From the NCBI GenBank assembly GCA_030043175.1, contig JASHYD010000060.1, forward strand, positions 1 through 7,175: DNA of 7,175 nt. Reading direction: 5' to 3'. Made by a program: the position numbers and the translations under genes. Of this stretch, positions 587 through 7,175 are shown piece after piece (the stretch's first letter is position 1; each line of letters opens with the position of its first letter). This DNA comes from Xanthobacteraceae bacterium (GTDB lineage: Bacteria > Pseudomonadota > Alphaproteobacteria > Rhizobiales > Xanthobacteraceae). Below the pieces are notes generated by a model. It ran no database searches. It had not been told where the DNA came from and worked only from the letters and a program-made list of their open reading frames with translations.

Positions 587-1249
587 TTATTTGAACAACT
601 TCGCCCGCACGGCGCAGTCCTTGGCCTCCAGTAATTTCTGCAGCGCCATGGTGCGCTGCGGATTGCGCGGCAGCGTCTCGACAAGGCGTCGCGCAAGATC
701 ACCAAATGGCTTGCTGTGCTCACGAAGATGCTCCGGCAGGTTCTCATCGACAAAGAATTGCAATAATGGCTCCTCCTCGACAAATGTCGCGCGCGATTCG
801 GTCAGGTCCGGGCGCTCGGCGGTGCCGGGATTGATAAAATTGACGGCATCCTGGCGCGTCATCTCCTGCTCCTGCAAGAAAAAGACGGCGTGGCTCTCCC
901 GTTCGGCAAAGATCGCCACCAGCACGTTCGCGGCGGTCACCTCCTCGCGGCCGGAAGACTGGACATGGATCACGGCACGCTGGATCACGCGCTGGAAACC
1001 GGCAGTGGGCTTTGAGTCCTCCCAGCCGTCGGTGACGAGATCTTCCAACTCGGATTCGACGTAGCTCGCGAGATTGTGGCGCAGCTTTTCGACGTCGACA
1101 TTGCAGCCCCGCATCACGGCGGCGGCGTCCTGGTCGTCAATCAACGCCAGCAACAAGTGCTCCAGCGTGGCGTATTCGTGGTGCCGCTCGTTGGCGAGCG
1201 CAAGTGCTTGGTGGAGCGATTGCTCTAGACCGCGCGAGAACGTCGGCAT
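587..1249 (-). CDS. ClpA-type N-domain protein fused to an Acb2/Tad1-like hairpin domain
   Basis: A 220-residue protein. Residues 1-143 match the N-domain of alphaproteobacterial ClpA (MPTFSRGLEQSL, HHEYATLEHLLLALIDD, GFQRVIQRAVIHVQSSGREE, FAERESHAVFFLQEQ). In ClpA this domain docks the adaptor ClpS and substrates for ClpAP proteolysis. Where ClpA would continue through its linker into the first AAA+ module, this protein changes at about residues 144-160 to an unrelated tail and stops. It therefore has no Walker motifs and no ClpP loop. Residues 161-217 (LLQFFVDENLPEHLREHSK, PFGDLARRLVETLPRNPQRT, ALQKLLEAKDCAVRA) form two predicted helices resembling the Acb2/Tad1 hairpin domain; Acb2 proteins sequester cyclic oligonucleotides. 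The start is set by a strong GGAGGAG. It is uninterrupted, unlike its neighbours. The N-domain call is firm; the tail call is from pattern memory. Cellular role unknown. Confidence 0.85.
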   Translation of the reverse strand: MPTFSRGLEQSLHQALALANERHHEYATLEHLLLALIDDQDAAAVMRGCNVDVEKLRHNLASYVESELEDLVTDGWEDSKPTAGFQRVIQRAVIHVQSSGREEVTAANVLVAIFAERESHAVFFLQEQEMTRQDAVNFINPGTAERPDLTESRATFVEEEPLLQFFVDENLPEHLREHSKPFGDLARRLVETLPRNPQRTMALQKLLEAKDCAVRAKLFK

Positions 1250-1257
1250 CAGGTTGT

Positions 1258-1267
1258 CTCCTCCTCA
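1258..1267 (-). promoter_or_regulatory. strong Shine-Dalgarno for the Clp-N fusion gene
   Basis: On the minus strand these bases read TGAGGAGGAG, ending 8 bases before the ATG at 1247-1249. This fixes the start of the Clp-N fusion gene, and the alignment with ClpA (MPTFSR) agrees. Confidence 0.8.
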
Positions 1268-1902: not shown

Positions 1903-3807
1903 ATGGTCAAGAGCGCTGACAATGGCCCGATTGACCACGTGATTGTTAAGGCCGCGATCTATCCTTCAATCGGAGTCGCGCGCGTCGGCAGCAGCAAGAC
2001 CGATTGGTATATCGGCCCTGAGGTGCCGAATCCGCTCCCGCGGCCCGCAGGCTTTTATCGCGACAAATCCGGTGCACTAAAGCGCGAGGCGGCGCGCTTT
2101 CGGGTCTATGGCTTGAATGCGGAGGGACGGATTGTTCGAGAGCTGACCTCGGCGGACGCCGAGGTGATTTGGAGCGTAAGGCTCGCAAACAAAAAAGCCG
2201 CTTGGTATGGATTCCAGTTGGCGCTGGACATCCCGGAGGCATCGGCGCCAGGCATGACGCCGACGACACTTCGTAATCCAATGATCACCCGTCGCGCCGC
2301 TCTCGCGATCACACCATCGGCCCGCTCGATTTCCGGTGCCTCCCAGCCCGAGCAACGATTTGGAGATGGTGCCTTCATGGGGAAGCCAGTTTACCTCGGA
2401 TCGATTCTGACCGATGACGCGGGTCGATTGGTCGTTCTCGGGGGACACGGAGTTTCCGCATCATACAACGACACTGCAGCTATCACGTTCGCCAACAACG
2501 ATACTTGGCACGACGATATGGCGGACGGCCCGGTCACGGCTGCGGCCAAGCTCGCCGACAGGGAGTTGCCGGTGGAGCCGGCCTGGATTGTTGTCGCTCC
2601 CCCAAATTATGCGCCTTGCCGCAAGTCGGTTCGGACCATGTGGGATTTGATGCGTGATCTCGCTATCAATAATGGCTGGCTGGTGACGCCAAAGCGGCCG
2701 TCCTTCGCCGACGACATCCTTCCCATCTTTGAGCGAATGGCCGGTCTGCAGTGGGTGAACGAGGGTTTCGCGGCGGGCTTTGGCTGGAAAGGAGTATTCG
2801 ATCTGACGCCTAACACAATCGGGCGTTTGGCGGCTCCCGATCCTGCCAACCTTGAATGGCGAAAGGTCATCGCGAATCTGTTTCGAACCGGAAGCATTGA
2901 CCAGACGAACACCGTTGACAGCTGGGCGCCAGTGCCGTGGCCCTGGATCTACGGCGACGCGATGAATCAGCCGCCGGCGTTGTCGCCGCGCCAGCACAGC
3001 AGCGTGTCTAACTTGCAGCGCGCACAGTTGCAACAATGGGCCGCTGGCGACTTCGACGCCGACTATGATCCTGGTCGCCGCGTGCCGCGACGCATCGAGG
3101 ATGTGCCCGTAGCGCAGCAGGGTGATACGCTTACCAAGGCTGCGCTCGATTTTTGCCTCGCCGATGCGTTCCATCCGGGTTGCGAGATGACCTGGCCCGT
3201 TCGCCAGATCTCGATGTATCGGGCACCATTTCGTTTCGCCCACGCGCCCGAAGACCGGATCGAGCCAGACTATGGATTGACGCTGACATATGCGACCGCA
3301 TCGGCGCCGAACGGCTGCCTCGGCCCGCAGGTGCCCGGCGGCATTAGCCGTTGGATGGCCCTACCTTGGCAGTGCGATACGGCGAGCTGCCGCTCGGGCT
3401 ATGACAAGACCTACGCCCCATTCCTTCCAACGTTCTGGCCCGCACGGGTCCCCAACCAGATCCTGACCCTCCAGGACTACCAGATCGTCATGGACGAGAC
3501 CCGGCCTTTGGCCGCGCGCCAGGCGGCGTTTTTACACCGAGAAGACTGGAATGCACCACTTGACCTGTCGTCGTCGCCCATCGCTCAAATCAATACGATG
3601 ATTACCCACTTCGACCGTATGGGTGTCGTCGAGAGCCACCCCGGACCGGCCGATGGTGCGTTTCCGGGGACCATCGAGGTCGAAGATCGATCGGAGGCTC
3701 GAACTGGCATCATGCTGCTTAAGCAAACCGGTGCCAAGGATTCAGGGGTGACAGACTTTTCAACGATTGACAAAGTGCATCGTTTGCCGCGGTCTTTGCA
3801 TCGCTGA
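1903..3807 (+). CDS. LodA/GoxA-family CTQ-dependent amine/amino-acid oxidase
   Basis: A 634-residue quinoprotein oxidase. Characterised relatives (lysine 6-oxidase LodA, glycine oxidase GoxA) oxidise amino acids and release ammonia and H2O2, using a cysteine tryptophylquinone built from their own Cys and Trp. Family blocks appear in order: AIYPSIGVARVG (18-29), WYIGPE (35-40), FYRD and KREAARFRVYG (51-70), LVVLGGHG (176-183), FANNDTWHDD (196-205), HPGCEMTWPVR (424-434), GGISRWMALPWQCDTASCR (479-497) and FWPARVPNQI (511-520). Probable CTQ residues are Cys427 (or Cys418) and Trp489 (or Trp484). The Cys427-Trp489 spacing of 62 is close to the 65 of LodA (Cys516-Trp581), but I cannot fix the pair without alignment. 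It is slightly shorter than LodA and has no obvious signal peptide or membrane segment. The next gene is its maturation partner. Family confident; substrate unknown. Confidence 0.93.
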   Translation: MVKSADNGPIDHVIVKAAIYPSIGVARVGSSKTDWYIGPEVPNPLPRPAGFYRDKSGALKREAARFRVYGLNAEGRIVRELTSADAEVIWSVRLANKKAAWYGFQLALDIPEASAPGMTPTTLRNPMITRRAALAITPSARSISGASQPEQRFGDGAFMGKPVYLGSILTDDAGRLVVLGGHGVSASYNDTAAITFANNDTWHDDMADGPVTAAAKLADRELPVEPAWIVVAPPNYAPCRKSVRTMWDLMRDLAINNGWLVTPKRPSFADDILPIFERMAGLQWVNEGFAAGFGWKGVFDLTPNTIGRLAAPDPANLEWRKVIANLFRTGSIDQTNTVDSWAPVPWPWIYGDAMNQPPALSPRQHSSVSNLQRAQLQQWAAGDFDADYDPGRRVPRRIEDVPVAQQGDTLTKAALDFCLADAFHPGCEMTWPVRQISMYRAPFRFAHAPEDRIEPDYGLTLTYATASAPNGCLGPQVPGGISRWMALPWQCDTASCRSGYDKTYAPFLPTFWPARVPNQILTLQDYQIVMDETRPLAARQAAFLHREDWNAPLDLSSSPIAQINTMITHFDRMGVVESHPGPADGAFPGTIEVEDRSEARTGIMLLKQTGAKDSGVTDFSTIDKVHRLPRSLHR

Positions 3808-3816
3808 AGGTTCAGG

Positions 3817-5022
3817 TTGATCATGGCGACCGATATTTCAGTTGATGTCGTCATTGTTGGTGCCGGACCGGCAGGCGCGGCCACGGCGCTGATGCTCTCG
3901 CCATTCGTTCGAACGCTGTTATTGGATCACGCGGACTTGCGTGCGGATCGCGAGGCTGGCGCCCGAATTGGAGAATCCCTTCCGGCTGCGGCGCATCGCA
4001 TACTGCGCGATATGGGACTTTGGAACGACTTCCTGCACCAGGGGCATGCTACCTGCTACGGGAGCCGGAGTATCTGGGGCGGGGCGGAGCCCGTTTGTGC
4101 CGACAGCATACGTGATCCCGACGGACCCGGTTGGCACCTCGATCGCGCGCGCTTCGATGCCTGGTTGCGCGCGTGGGCATGCCAGCGCGGAGCCACACTG
4201 AGGACGCCGGCCAGGGTGGTGGCCCTGCGGCGCGACGGTGCTGATTGGCGCCTAAGCCTGCTCCATCATGGCCAGTCTGTGACTGTGGCCTGCAGATACG
4301 TGATCGACGCTGGCGGACGCAGGGCTTCCGTGGTTCGAATGCTCGGACGAAGACCCACGTCCGCGGACCGTCTCGTCTGTCGCTGGATTCATGGCGCTTC
4401 TCAAGGCGACTATGGTACCACCGTCGTCGAGGCCGAGCCGGATGGCTGGTGGTATACCGCTGCGCTTCCGGGCGGGCGGCGTGTGCTTGCCTTCCATACC
4501 GACGCTGACCTGACCGCTGCAAAGACAACAGTAACCAGCCAGGCCCTTCTGGCACGTGCACGAACGCAATCAGGGGTCGGGCCATTGCTCGCTATCACCG
4601 GTTTCGAGGCGCAAGGAATCGGTGGCAATTGCGGGGCTCAAACCAGTTGGCTCGGCGGAGTGACCGGTCAGGGATGGATCGCGGTTGGCGACGCTGCCTT
4701 GGCCTGCGACCCGCTCTCTTCGCAAGGTCTATTGAACGCACTCTACTCGGCGCTCCTCGCCGCGGGTGCGGTCAGGCAGGCACTAGCTGGCGATCCCAGC
4801 GGCCTGGATGAATATCAGGCGGCTATCAATGATCTGTCGAGCGTTTACCGCGCTCACCTCATGGCCTGGTATACGCTTGAAAGAAGATGGTGTGATAGAC
4901 TGTTCTGGCTGCGCAGGCACGTGTCGGTCGACTGTGAAGAATCGCCGTTGACGCGGCGGCGCGTTTTGGCGCCGCGCCAAGCAACGCCTGGAGGAGGCGC
5001 AATAAAAATCTCAGCCACTTGA
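3817..5022 (+). CDS. LodB/GoxB-like FAD-dependent oxidoreductase (CTQ maturation partner)
   Basis: A 401-residue flavoprotein. Residues 11-22 (VVIVGAGPAGAA) are the FAD-binding GxGxxG fold. IGESLP (51-56) and a VIDAGGR segment (162-168) follow, and GWIAVGDAALACDPLSSQG (286-304) is the conserved GD motif near the flavin in the halogenase/PHBH-like family. In characterised operons LodB or GoxB is needed post-translationally to form CTQ in the oxidase, and the placement 9 bases after the oxidase stop fits that role and suggests coupled translation. The start is uncertain: GAAGG at 3806-3810 suits TTG at 3817 (spacer 6), while ATG at 3823 gives a spacer of 12 and loses only two residues. The last 30 residues or so, rich in Arg, Pro and Gly, look unlike the rest and may be a replaced 3' end, since mobile-element debris starts soon after. 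Confidence 0.9.
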   Translation: MIMATDISVDVVIVGAGPAGAATALMLSPFVRTLLLDHADLRADREAGARIGESLPAAAHRILRDMGLWNDFLHQGHATCYGSRSIWGGAEPVCADSIRDPDGPGWHLDRARFDAWLRAWACQRGATLRTPARVVALRRDGADWRLSLLHHGQSVTVACRYVIDAGGRRASVVRMLGRRPTSADRLVCRWIHGASQGDYGTTVVEAEPDGWWYTAALPGGRRVLAFHTDADLTAAKTTVTSQALLARARTQSGVGPLLAITGFEAQGIGGNCGAQTSWLGGVTGQGWIAVGDAALACDPLSSQGLLNALYSALLAAGAVRQALAGDPSGLDEYQAAINDLSSVYRAHLMAWYTLERRWCDRLFWLRRHVSVDCEESPLTRRRVLAPRQATPGGGAIKISAT

Positions 5023-5293: not shown

Positions 5294-5718
5294 GTTGCCC
5301 CGAAACTCACGCCTGAAGCGCTTCTCGATCATTTTGCCATCATCGATGATCCGCGCGACCCGTGGCGTGCGGCGCACCGGCTGGCGGAGGTTTTGCTGCT
5401 CGTCGTTTGCGGCACGATCGCGGACTGCGACGACTACGAAGCCATTGCAAAATGGGCAACGCACATCTTGCGTTTTTTCGTTGTTTTCTGCCCTACTATC
5501 ACGGCGTTCCCGGTGCGCGTTGGCTGACCATTCTGGTGAACCGCGTCAATCCGGACCTGTTCGCGCACGCGTTTACGGGTTGGGTACGGGAGATGTGGCC
5601 TGATCGAGCGAACTTTATCGCCATCGACGGCAAGACGTCGCGCCTAAGTCACAATCGTGGCGCCGGCAAAGCGCCGCTTCACCTCGTTTCCGCTTTTGCC
5701 ACCAACAGTCGTCGCTGA
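5294..5718 (+). pseudogene. ISAs1-family transposase, frameshifted and 3'-truncated
   Basis: Two frames together give an ISAs1-type transposase N-terminus. The first (5294 to about 5450) reads LTPEALLDHFAIIDDPRD then LAEVLLLVVCGTIADCDDYE, ending AIAKW. The second (about 5450-5718) reads GNAHLAFFRCFLPYYHGVPG, then RWLTILVNRVNP, WVREMWPDRA, FIAIDGKTSR and GAGKAPLHLVSAFATNSR. Loss of one G after AAATGG explains the switch; restoring it gives a continuous KWGNAHLAF. The associated N-terminal domain and the first catalytic Asp (AIDGK) are present. Similarity then stops at about 5713, and a TGA follows at 5716-5718, so the rest of the DDE domain and the C-terminus are missing. No clear start codon lies upstream in frame. 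It cannot make an active transposase. Orientation is opposite to the IS remnant that follows. Confidence 0.85.
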
Positions 5719-5751: not shown

Positions 5752-5767
5752 CTCAAACTCTCAAACT
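5752..5767. repeat. 8-base perfect tandem duplication at the 3' end of an IS remnant
   Basis: CTCAAACT is repeated head to tail (5752-5759 and 5760-5767). It produces two nearby minus-strand TGA stops, at 5761-5763 and 5753-5755, in different frames of the integrase-core transposase remnant. Just left of it CCTGTC is also doubled (5736-5747). These are slippage-type duplications at an element edge. Confidence 0.6.
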
Positions 5768-6280
5768 CGAACATATCGATGGTGTAGCCCGCCCAAGATC
5801 GGCGACGAAAGCACGCGCGTCGGCGTGATCGTGAACAAAGTCCTCGAGCCCTGCGACGGCGGCCGTTCGTCGTTTCGCCATGTACTTCGCCACGGTGGTC
5901 TGGCCGACATCCACGCCGAGCTTAAGGAGTTCACCGTGGATGCGGGGAGCGCCCCATAGCGGATTCGCCACGGTCATCTCACGAATGAGTTGGCGAATCT
6001 CATCACGTGTCCTGGGTCGACCGCCGCGTGGCCTTGATTTCCTGCGCCGCCCGGCTCGCAACCCAGCGCGATGCCATCTGATGATGGTCTCCACTTTGAG
6101 GATTTTCACCACGTCCAACACCTCGGGAGCCAGGTGATAGAGCCCCGCAAACACCAGGCGATCGATACCTACGCCTCAGCACATTGAGCTGTGCCGAAGG
6201 GCGAGAAATTCGGTTTGCAAGGCTGCGCGCGAAAACAGCCCGACCACGGCGTGCCAGATCAACTCGAGGAGATCGCTCAT
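5761..6280 (-). pseudogene. integrase-core (IS3/IS481-like) transposase with catalytic core deleted
   Basis: The minus strand from the ATG at 6278-6280 reads MSDLLELIWHAVVGLF, ALQTEFLALRH, then (one base lost; new frame) QLNVLRR. After a gap in the family pattern follow DRLVFAGLYHLAP, VETIIRWHRAG, SRPRGGRPRTRDEIRQLIRE, NPLWGAPRIHGELLKLGVDV and GQTTVAKYMAKRR. Beyond this the frame shifts (PPSQG), shifts back (FVHDHADA), and shifts again into PILGGLHHRYVRV with a stop at 5761-5763. PILGGLHHxYVR is the family's extreme C-terminus, so the whole rve catalytic domain, with its DDE residues, has been removed by an internal deletion. At least three frameshifts and two deletions are visible, so it is non-functional. 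It lies head-on to the ISAs1 fragment, whose similarity ends about 25-45 bases away. I could not define terminal inverted repeats with certainty. Confidence 0.85.
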
Positions 6281-6991: not shown

Positions 6992-7175
6992 TCAAGCAGC
7001 CTTATCGAGCTTGAAGGGCCAGGTGTGAACGACGGGCTGCTGATTGAAGTAATCGATAGCGGCCATGATGCGATCCTTGAGTTCTTGTTTGGATGCGACA
7101 CGGATATGACGCAAGACGGAGCGGGCGAGTTTAGAGAAGAAGCCCTCGATGAGGTTTAGCCAGGAGCCGTGCGTG
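6992..7175 (-). CDS. IS630-family transposase, C-terminal part (continues past right edge)
   Basis: The minus strand from the right edge reads THGSWLNLIEGFFSKLARSV, then LRHIRVASKQELKDRI, MAAIDYFNQQPVVHTW and KLDKAA, with TGA at 6992-6994. This is the C-terminus of an IS630/Tc1-type DDE transposase. The HGSWLNxxE segment holds the last catalytic acidic residue (Glu), and the tail is the usual helix pair. All 60 residues seen are in one frame with no damage, unlike the other IS genes here, so this copy may be whole outside the window. The transposase catalyses cut-and-paste transposition into TA targets. A CTAG at 6961-6964, 28 bases past the stop, is a possible element/target junction. Confidence 0.9.
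   Translation of the reverse strand, partial: THGSWLNLIEGFFSKLARSVLRHIRVASKQELKDRIMAAIDYFNQQPVVHTWPFKLDKAA

What the first reader, a model, noticed from the sequence alone, without database searches (positions are those of the whole stretch)
587..1249. Fusion of a ClpA N-domain to an Acb2/Tad1-like hairpin domain
The protein keeps a full ClpA-type N-domain, loses both ATPase modules, and ends in a helical hairpin resembling the fold of phage anti-CBASS sponges. The frame is clean and has one of the strongest Shine-Dalgarno sites in the window, although it sits among decayed elements. The N-domain could bind ClpS or ClpA substrates while the hairpin binds a cyclic oligonucleotide, which would link nucleotide signalling to ClpAP proteolysis; or the protein could be a ClpS decoy or an anti-defence cargo gene. 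Seen: the abrupt change after residue 143 and the lack of Walker motifs. Known: roles of the ClpA N-domain and of Acb2. Inferred: the combined function.
Basis: partly seen in the sequence, partly recalled or inferred. Interest (0 to 1): 0.75.

Follow-up and report, generated by a model that had tools for sequence, protein, structure and literature searches.

The report
ClpA N-domain fused to phage hairpin
A bacterial gene joins the docking part of a protein-destroying machine (ClpA, without its motor) to a small helical hairpin otherwise found in phages that is probably a distant relative of phage immune-evasion sponges, suggesting a decoy or adaptor whose function still has to be tested.

Summary
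In detail: on the minus strand at window 587-1249 lies an intact 220-aa protein made of a complete ClpA N-domain, a variable linker and a C-terminal helical hairpin, without AAA+ modules. It is not a broken ClpA: the architecture recurs in metagenomes with both domains conserved and the linker variable, and the N-domains fall in one clade among Xanthobacteraceae-type ClpA. The tail belongs to a phage family of unknown function (PHROG 1761/5120). Pfam's Acb2/Tad1 model does not match it and direct profile comparison with T4 or Pseudomonas Acb2 is at noise. A gapless profile match to an actinophage-rich set of that Pfam family (45-80% by alignment treatment; 0 of 500 shuffles as high), Acb2/Tad1-named proteins among its nearest predicted structures, and a partner module shared with Acb2 genes make it a probable remote relative. 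The putative nucleotide-contact tyrosine is Asp here. Most likely mechanism (inferred): a hairpin-assembled ClpA-N decoy or adaptor that titrates ClpS or other N-domain ligands, as mycobacterial ClpC2 does for an N-domain toxin. Nucleotide binding, oligomerisation and ClpS binding are untested. A new architecture of a known kind, one of several ATPase-less ClpA-N proteins noticed here.

The parts
587..1249 (-). CDS, 220 aa, ClpA N-domain plus phage-type hairpin (stop 587-589)
   Evidence: homologues with both parts
821..1249 (-). ClpA N-domain, residues 1-143
   Evidence: Clp_N; NCBIfam ClpA; E. coli ClpA-N structures; model (mostly 78-95 pLDDT per ten residues, 53 at 71-80)
767..820 (-). variable linker, residues 144-161; 15-76 residues long in relatives
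   Evidence: pLDDT below 50 at 142-159
590..766 (-). C-terminal helical hairpin, residues 162-220 (PHROG 1761/5120 type; probable remote relative of PF24729)
1258..1264 (-). Shine-Dalgarno-like GGAGGAG, 8 nt before the ATG

Best explanation
The gene encodes a stand-alone, ATPase-less ClpA N-domain joined by a flexible linker to a small phage-type antiparallel helical hairpin, probably a remote relative of the Acb2/Tad1 hairpins. SHOWN by computation: the architecture, its recurrence, conservation of both domains, one N-domain clade placed (with modest support) among Xanthobacteraceae-type ClpA. INFERRED: the hairpin self-assembles, as Acb2-type hairpins do, and displays several ClpA N-domains without a motor. 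These bind what ClpA's own N-domain binds, first of all ClpS, or inhibitors and activators aimed at the N-domain. The protein thus works as a multivalent decoy or adaptor that tunes ClpS-dependent ClpAP proteolysis, comparable to mycobacterial ClpC2, where an added domain dimerises a motor-less N-domain that soaks up an N-domain-binding toxin.
For: N-domain intact: invariant columns of the 30 aligned fusions include E25, E30, T82, R87, R91, which align to E. coli ClpA E23, E28, T81, R86, R90 (that some of these contact ClpS is recalled, not looked up). In 29 fusions (P0038 dropped) mean pairwise identity is 87% in the N-domain, 69% in the linker, 90% in the hairpin. All 29 N-domains fall, with the first N-domains of 5 tandem ClpN-ClpN proteins, in one clade (98/83) next to Rhodoplanes ClpA (93/92) (bootstrap not settled, few columns). 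ClpA-N is reused without a motor in other forms, some joined to ClpS itself: ClpN-ClpS (L244), ClpN-ClpN-ClpS (P0040, P0050), ClpN-ClpN (P0012, P0021), Glyoxalase_8-ClpN (L245, L248); the L loci come from genomes of one Xanthobacteraceae genus. Hairpin kinship to Acb2/Tad1. Precedent ClpC2 (PMC10030653, passages); Acb2 hexamer and protomer shape (PMC12043709, passages).
Against: No oligomer prediction, binding or expression data. Direct comparison of the hairpin to T4 or Ac42/p26-type Acb2 is at noise. Short forms (P0241-P0243, 177-179 aa) keep only about the first half of the N-domain, which weakens a strict need for the full ClpS-binding face. The five full-length models differ widely in mean pLDDT (75 to 49). 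The surroundings hold transposase remnants.
Confidence: 0.4

Rival explanations
1. Integrated bait: a domesticated phage hairpin co-assembles with the homologous hairpin proteins of incoming phages and, through the attached ClpA N-domain, poisons them or brings them to ClpS/ClpAP, so the host turns a phage protein into a defence sensor.
For: Rhizobial phages encode hairpins 66-68% identical to the window's (Mesorhizobium phage Cp1R7A-A1, Bradyrhizobium phage ppBeUSDA76-1); free-standing homologues of 63-64 aa reach 81% and 78% (P0131, P0130). The hairpin is as conserved as the N-domain. Acb2 assembles into hexamers (PMC12043709, passages).
Against: No defence-island context could be read; no assay; the hairpin tree is unresolved.
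Confidence: 0.2
2. Nucleotide-gated regulator: the hairpin binds a cyclic oligonucleotide and links nucleotide signalling to ClpAP.
For: Probable remote kinship to Acb2/Tad1 hairpins.
Against: The tail family's Tyr position is Tyr in 16 and Asp in 13 of 29 fusions, Asp in the window; T4 Phe82, which stacks on the ligand (PMC12657218, passages), lies opposite Leu218 in a gapless extension (by eye). No CBASS gene was recognised among the ten other window ORFs scanned.
Confidence: 0.12
3. The tail is only a generic helical hairpin of a separate phage family, not related to Acb2/Tad1; the protein is still a ClpA-N fusion.
For: No Pfam match, no PDB fold match better than E 5, profile comparison with the main Acb2 types at noise, Foldseek E-values of the Acb2/Tad1-named neighbours 0.1 or worse, profile match to the actinophage-rich set only 7-45% under other alignment treatments.
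Against: taken together.
Confidence: 0.3
4. Truncated or decayed ClpA, or an assembly artefact.
For: Transposase remnants nearby; frameshifted ClpA pieces exist in databases (P0065, P0067, by eye).
Against: Other proteins at 80-98% identity keep both domains open and conserved; the tail is a phage family, not the ClpA linker.
Confidence: 0.02

Closest known systems
ClpC2 of mycobacteria (motor-less ClpC1 N-domain homologue)
   Same: Clp N-domain without AAA+ modules joined to an extra helical domain; sequesters an N-domain ligand (PMC10030653, passages)
   Different: ClpC type, extra domain N-terminal (four-helix bundle, dimer, residues 4-72 solved); here ClpA type with a phage-type hairpin at the C-terminus
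Acb2/Tad1 hairpin domain (Pfam PF24729; T4 Vs.4, p26/PaMx type, actinophage members)
   Same: short helix plus two long antiparallel helices; gapless profile match to the actinophage-rich set; same partner module beside or fused to it
   Different: below the Pfam cut-off; conserved KLLEAKDCAVRA helix not seen in the Acb2 sequences aligned here; presumed nucleotide-contact residues not kept; direct match to T4 and Ac42/p26 types at noise
PHROG 1761 and PHROG 5120 (phage proteins of unknown function)
   Same: the tail is a clear member by sequence
   Different: in phages mostly a free protein of about 64 aa; here joined to a bacterial ClpA N-domain
Other ClpA-N reuses: ClpN-ClpS, ClpN-ClpN-ClpS, ClpN-ClpN, Glyoxalase_8-ClpN
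   Same: ATPase-less ClpA-N modules; the first N-domain of 5 tandem proteins shares the fusion's clade
   Different: different second module

Membership tests
Acb2/Tad1 hairpin domain PF24729 | score above Pfam gathering cut-off (27 bits) | tested here: not met
   0 hits for the window; 0 of 29 and 0 of 48 relatives; of ten phage relatives scanned one, Vibrio phage martha, gave 14.1 bits, E 0.057. Controls ring: T4 Vs.4 7.1e-20, seven other members
Acb2/Tad1 hairpin domain PF24729 | protomer of one short helix and two long antiparallel helices | tested here: met
   AlphaFold2 mean pLDDT 90, helices 12-17, 24-43, 48-70 plus a low-confidence 3-10; description of Acb2 in PMC12043709 (passages). 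A common shape
Acb2/Tad1 hairpin domain PF24729 | detectable profile homology to curated members | tested here: inconclusive
   Actinophage-rich set of 9: 80% with gap columns trimmed, 41 gapless columns, 0 of 500 column shuffles as high (max 18.3 against 29.8); untrimmed 45% and, with five divergent relatives added, 23%; merged with other Acb2 16% and 7%; 1 of 300 untrimmed shuffles, an odd outlier, scored higher. T4-type 0.95% and Ac42/p26-type 0.4%
Acb2/Tad1 hairpin domain PF24729 | nucleotide-contact residues (T4 Tyr8, Phe82) | tested here: inconclusive
   Asp168 at the Tyr-like position in the window, Leu218 opposite Phe82; this alignment is by eye
Acb2/Tad1 hairpin domain PF24729 | cyclic oligonucleotide binding | not testable with these tools
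   needs a binding assay
Acb2/Tad1 hairpin domain PF24729 | hexamer | not tested
   only monomer prediction offered
ClpA (AAA+ unfoldase) | N-domain plus two AAA+ modules | tested here: not met
   220 aa, 143.1 bits against a cut-off of 1350; no Walker A
Clp N-domain PF02861, ClpA subtype | Clp_N above cut-off and ClpA as best subtype | tested here: met
   48 bits against 20.7; ClpA models 143 and 130 bits, ClpV 30, ClpB 29; ClpA-N structures
Motor-less Clp-N decoys (ClpC2 type) | sequesters N-domain ligands | not testable with these tools
   inferred from architecture only

The most novel reading that the evidence does not exclude
Xanthobacteraceae-type bacteria have captured a phage hairpin of the Acb2/Tad1 superfamily and joined it to the ClpA docking domain as an integrated bait: the fusion co-assembles with the hairpin sponge of an invading phage and delivers it to, or releases, the ClpS/ClpAP machinery, a bacterial parallel to integrated decoys of plant immune receptors.
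Probability: 0.13. Interest if true: 0.88.

Novelty: new variant of a known kind. Interest (0 to 1): 0.6.

Why it matters
It shows ClpA's docking domain as a free, reusable module joined to a phage-type protein, beside relatives that couple it to itself and to ClpS. It also ties a phage family of unknown function (1639 proteins of about 39-124 aa; 367 phage records with a match at E up to 10) to the Acb2/Tad1 sponge superfamily, which makes the function of both testable.

Tried and rejected
Direct Pfam match of the tail to Acb2/Tad1: none. Solved structures by sequence: no Acb2 chain among the hits. First profile comparisons (T4-rich Acb2 set): noise, 40 of 200 shuffles as high, reversed alignment higher, while two Acb2 branches found each other at 98%. 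Adding bacterial and phage PF24729 members: 17.4 (6.8%), or 15.4 (2.3%) with divergent relatives, the latter above 150 of 150 shuffles (max 14.9). The actinophage-rich set was chosen after I saw the resemblance by eye, so its score is not blind; other treatments gave 45, 23, 16 and 7%; leave-one-out of four rows gave 76-83%, removal of all four 74%. Bridge through mycobacteriophage and Gordonia phage relatives of the tail: no PF24729 hit. Upstream genes of 13 hairpins compared with each other: nothing below E 0.1; compared with the partner modules of hairpin fusions, 2 of 6 Acb2-type upstream genes matched and 0 of 7 tail-type ones. Same slot in two Acinetobacter T4-like phages: suggestive, but the slot is variable. 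Plasmid hits of the tail (24 records) not followed. P0314 (Lon N-domain plus half a hairpin, contig of 1173 bases) set aside as a probable chimera. Hairpin tree with 61 columns: unresolved. A Foldseek control with an unrelated hairpin model could not be run (prediction cap).

Full report
WHAT IS THERE. The ORF lies on the minus strand, ATG 1249-1247 to stop 587-589, 220 aa. A GGAGGAG sits 8 nt upstream of the ATG. Residues 1-143 are a complete ClpA-type N-domain and no Walker A motif is present. Residues 144-161 are a linker of low predicted confidence. Residues 162-220 match PHROG 1761 (4.5e-23) and PHROG 5120 (3.6e-15), both of unknown function. The tail alone finds 1639 proteins at E up to 0.001 in the size class of about 39-124 aa, most of the 120 listed having 62-75 aa, and 367 of 50,697 phage records at E up to 10, of which 153 hold at least 80% of it. 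AlphaFold2 gives two short and two long helices, the long ones antiparallel in the manner of a hairpin (mean pLDDT 90; first ten residues 55).

IT IS A REAL, RECURRENT ARCHITECTURE. I aligned 30 of the 120 proteins listed, those that I took to have both parts. P0038, with an internal gap, was dropped before the counts. In the remaining 29 the mean pairwise identity is 87% in the N-domain, 69% in the linker (15-76 residues) and 90% in the hairpin. A search with residues 150-220 over proteins of 121-385 aa gave 111 hits, 41 of them (the window's own included) with a precomputed Clp_N domain. Some keep only about the first half of the N-domain (P0241-P0243, 177-179 aa); one of these, P0242, is named in NCBI from a Xanthobacteraceae MAG. 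An N-domain tree of 100 rows (29 fusions; 42 ClpA that passed my length and motif filters out of 80 loci; 28 N-domains of tandem-type proteins; 1 ClpN-ClpS) puts all 29 fusions and the first N-domains of 5 tandem ClpN-ClpN proteins in one clade (98/83), next to Rhodoplanes ClpA (93/92), among Xanthobacteraceae-type ClpA (82/74, weak). The bootstrap had not settled and the columns are few. Inside that clade the fusions need two changes, so one or two origins of the fusion remain possible. Together this excludes a recently broken ClpA.

WHERE IT WAS NOT FOUND. Among 391 genomes of the family and 397 of the order, 8 and 8 carry a tail-type hairpin; in none of the 16 does the hairpin's open frame match the N-domain. 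The 80 viral loci match from residue 111 or later. No genome of the window's own is held, so neighbours beyond the window are unknown; the environment of the metagenomes was not shown by any search.

IS THE TAIL ACB2/TAD1-LIKE? Against: PF24729 does not match the window, 0 of 29 and 0 of 48 relatives, although it does match T4 Vs.4; of ten phage relatives one, Vibrio phage martha, gives a subthreshold 14.1 bits over profile 20-55 of 58. Profile comparison with T4-type or Ac42/p26-type Acb2 is at noise. PDB fold search gave nothing better than E 5. For: (i) In BFVD, ranks 1-6 are tail-family or unnamed proteins at 27-50% identity (ranks 1 and 2 are phages that the tail also hit by sequence); ranks 7 and 8 are named 'Acb2/Tad1 hairpin domain-containing protein' (probability 0.99, query TM 0.58 and 0.67, but E 0.10 and 0.26), and 11 of the 50 rows shown bear that name, the other nine at E above 1. 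The full-length model, dominated by ClpA-N helices, drew none among its 50 rows, a weak control. (ii) Nine PF24729 members (six of actinophages, one Lactococcus phage, one viral contig, one bacterial genome; seven verified, the other two called) align to the tail family without a gap over 41 columns, 27% identity to ISF9. With gap columns trimmed the probability is 80% (score 29.8), 0 of 500 column shuffles reach it (maximum 18.3) and the reversed alignment scores 9.0. Without trimming it is 45%, with five divergent relatives added 23%, and with all Acb2 types merged 16% and 7%; one odd shuffle of 300 exceeded the untrimmed score. In a panel of 22 phage ORF families scored against this set, the T4 Vs.4 family ranks first (92%), the tail family second (58%), the next 3.7% (untrimmed 79, 12 and 1.9%). 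(iii) The gene that overlaps the start of Acb2 in Acinetobacter phage Ac42 is homologous (42%, 1.2e-19 in a local set of 76 modules) to the N-terminal module joined to a tail-type hairpin in P0257, likewise P0269 and P0270, and the gene before the hairpin of phage Ab9 (Acb2 type by tblastn with p26) resembles the module of P0270 (5.7e-8). These are 2 of 6 Acb2-type upstream genes examined; 0 of 7 tail-type upstream genes matched a module. (iv) Ac42 and ZZ1, two Twarogvirinae, hold the two hairpin types between the topoisomerase and RNA ligase genes, and ZZ1 has no PF24729 match elsewhere. I conclude a probable remote relative (about 0.7), not a member by Pfam's rule.

DOES IT BIND A NUCLEOTIDE? 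Nothing shows it. At the tail family's Tyr position 16 of 29 fusions have Tyr and 13 Asp; the window has Asp168. In T4 Acb2, Tyr8 and Phe82 are implicated in binding (PMC12657218, passages). The conserved KLLEAKDCAVRA of the tail is not seen in the Acb2 sequences aligned here.

HOW IT MOST LIKELY WORKS. Columns of the N-domain that align to E. coli ClpA E23, E28, T81, R86 and R90 are invariant in the 30 fusions; that some of these contact ClpS is recalled. Related genomes and metagenomes hold other motor-less ClpA-N proteins, some joined to ClpS. Mycobacterial ClpC2 is a motor-less Clp N-domain, dimerised by an added helical domain, that soaks up an N-domain toxin; its authors suggest phage proteins and adaptors as further partners (PMC10030653, passages). 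By analogy I infer that the hairpin assembles the protein and the N-domains act as decoy or adaptor for ClpS or for molecules aimed at ClpA. The bait model, in which the hairpin co-assembles with phage hairpins, is the boldest reading not excluded.

LITERATURE. No paper in the held library has both Acb2 and ClpA; none holds PF24729 or the two PHROG names; searches on ClpA/ClpS with fusion, phage or Hyphomicrobiales terms showed no such protein in their listings (titles and abstract starts seen). Of the papers cited I saw passages only. Subscription papers are not held.

Noticed in passing
window 1903-3807 and 3817-5022, + strand: LodA-type L-lysine epsilon-oxidase (LodA_N 2.7e-79, LodA_C 2.5e-38) followed at once by an FAD-dependent protein, by position a LodB-type partner (inferred), beside the fusion gene.
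   Followed up: no
window 5362-5715, 5756-6154 (-), 6995-7174 (-): Pieces that look like decayed transposases: DDE_Tnp_1-associated (subthreshold), HTH_32/HTH_21 (above cut-off), DDE_3 (subthreshold).
   Followed up: no
L244:4664-5410 (-); P0040, P0042, P0046, P0047, P0050; P0012, P0021, P0025, P0033, P0035: Other ATPase-less ClpA-N proteins: ClpN-ClpS (248 aa), ClpN-ClpN-ClpS (about 370-385 aa) and ClpN-ClpN (about 305-325 aa).
   Followed up: partly
L245:258-968, L248:1371-2174 (-); L246 and L247:2306-3115 by eye: Glyoxalase_8-type N-terminal segment joined to a ClpA N-domain in three genomes of one genus (G180 twice, one cut by the contig end; G151; G235).
   Followed up: no
L218:2983-3207 and L219:2989-3222: Acinetobacter phages Ac42 and ZZ1 hold Acb2 and the tail-type hairpin in the same slot between topoisomerase and rnlB.
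   Followed up: partly
P0257, P0269, P0270; L218:2688-3008; L223:980-1483: A small module (P0257: precomputed PF14083) precedes two Acb2-type genes and is fused to tail-type hairpins.
   Followed up: partly
P0314: Lon N-terminal domain (PF02190) joined to the second helix of the hairpin on a contig of 1173 bases; probably a chimera, worth a check since it would be a second protease docking domain.
   Followed up: no
P0241-P0243: Short forms with only about the first half of the ClpA N-domain joined to the hairpin, one of them in an NCBI Xanthobacteraceae MAG.
   Followed up: no
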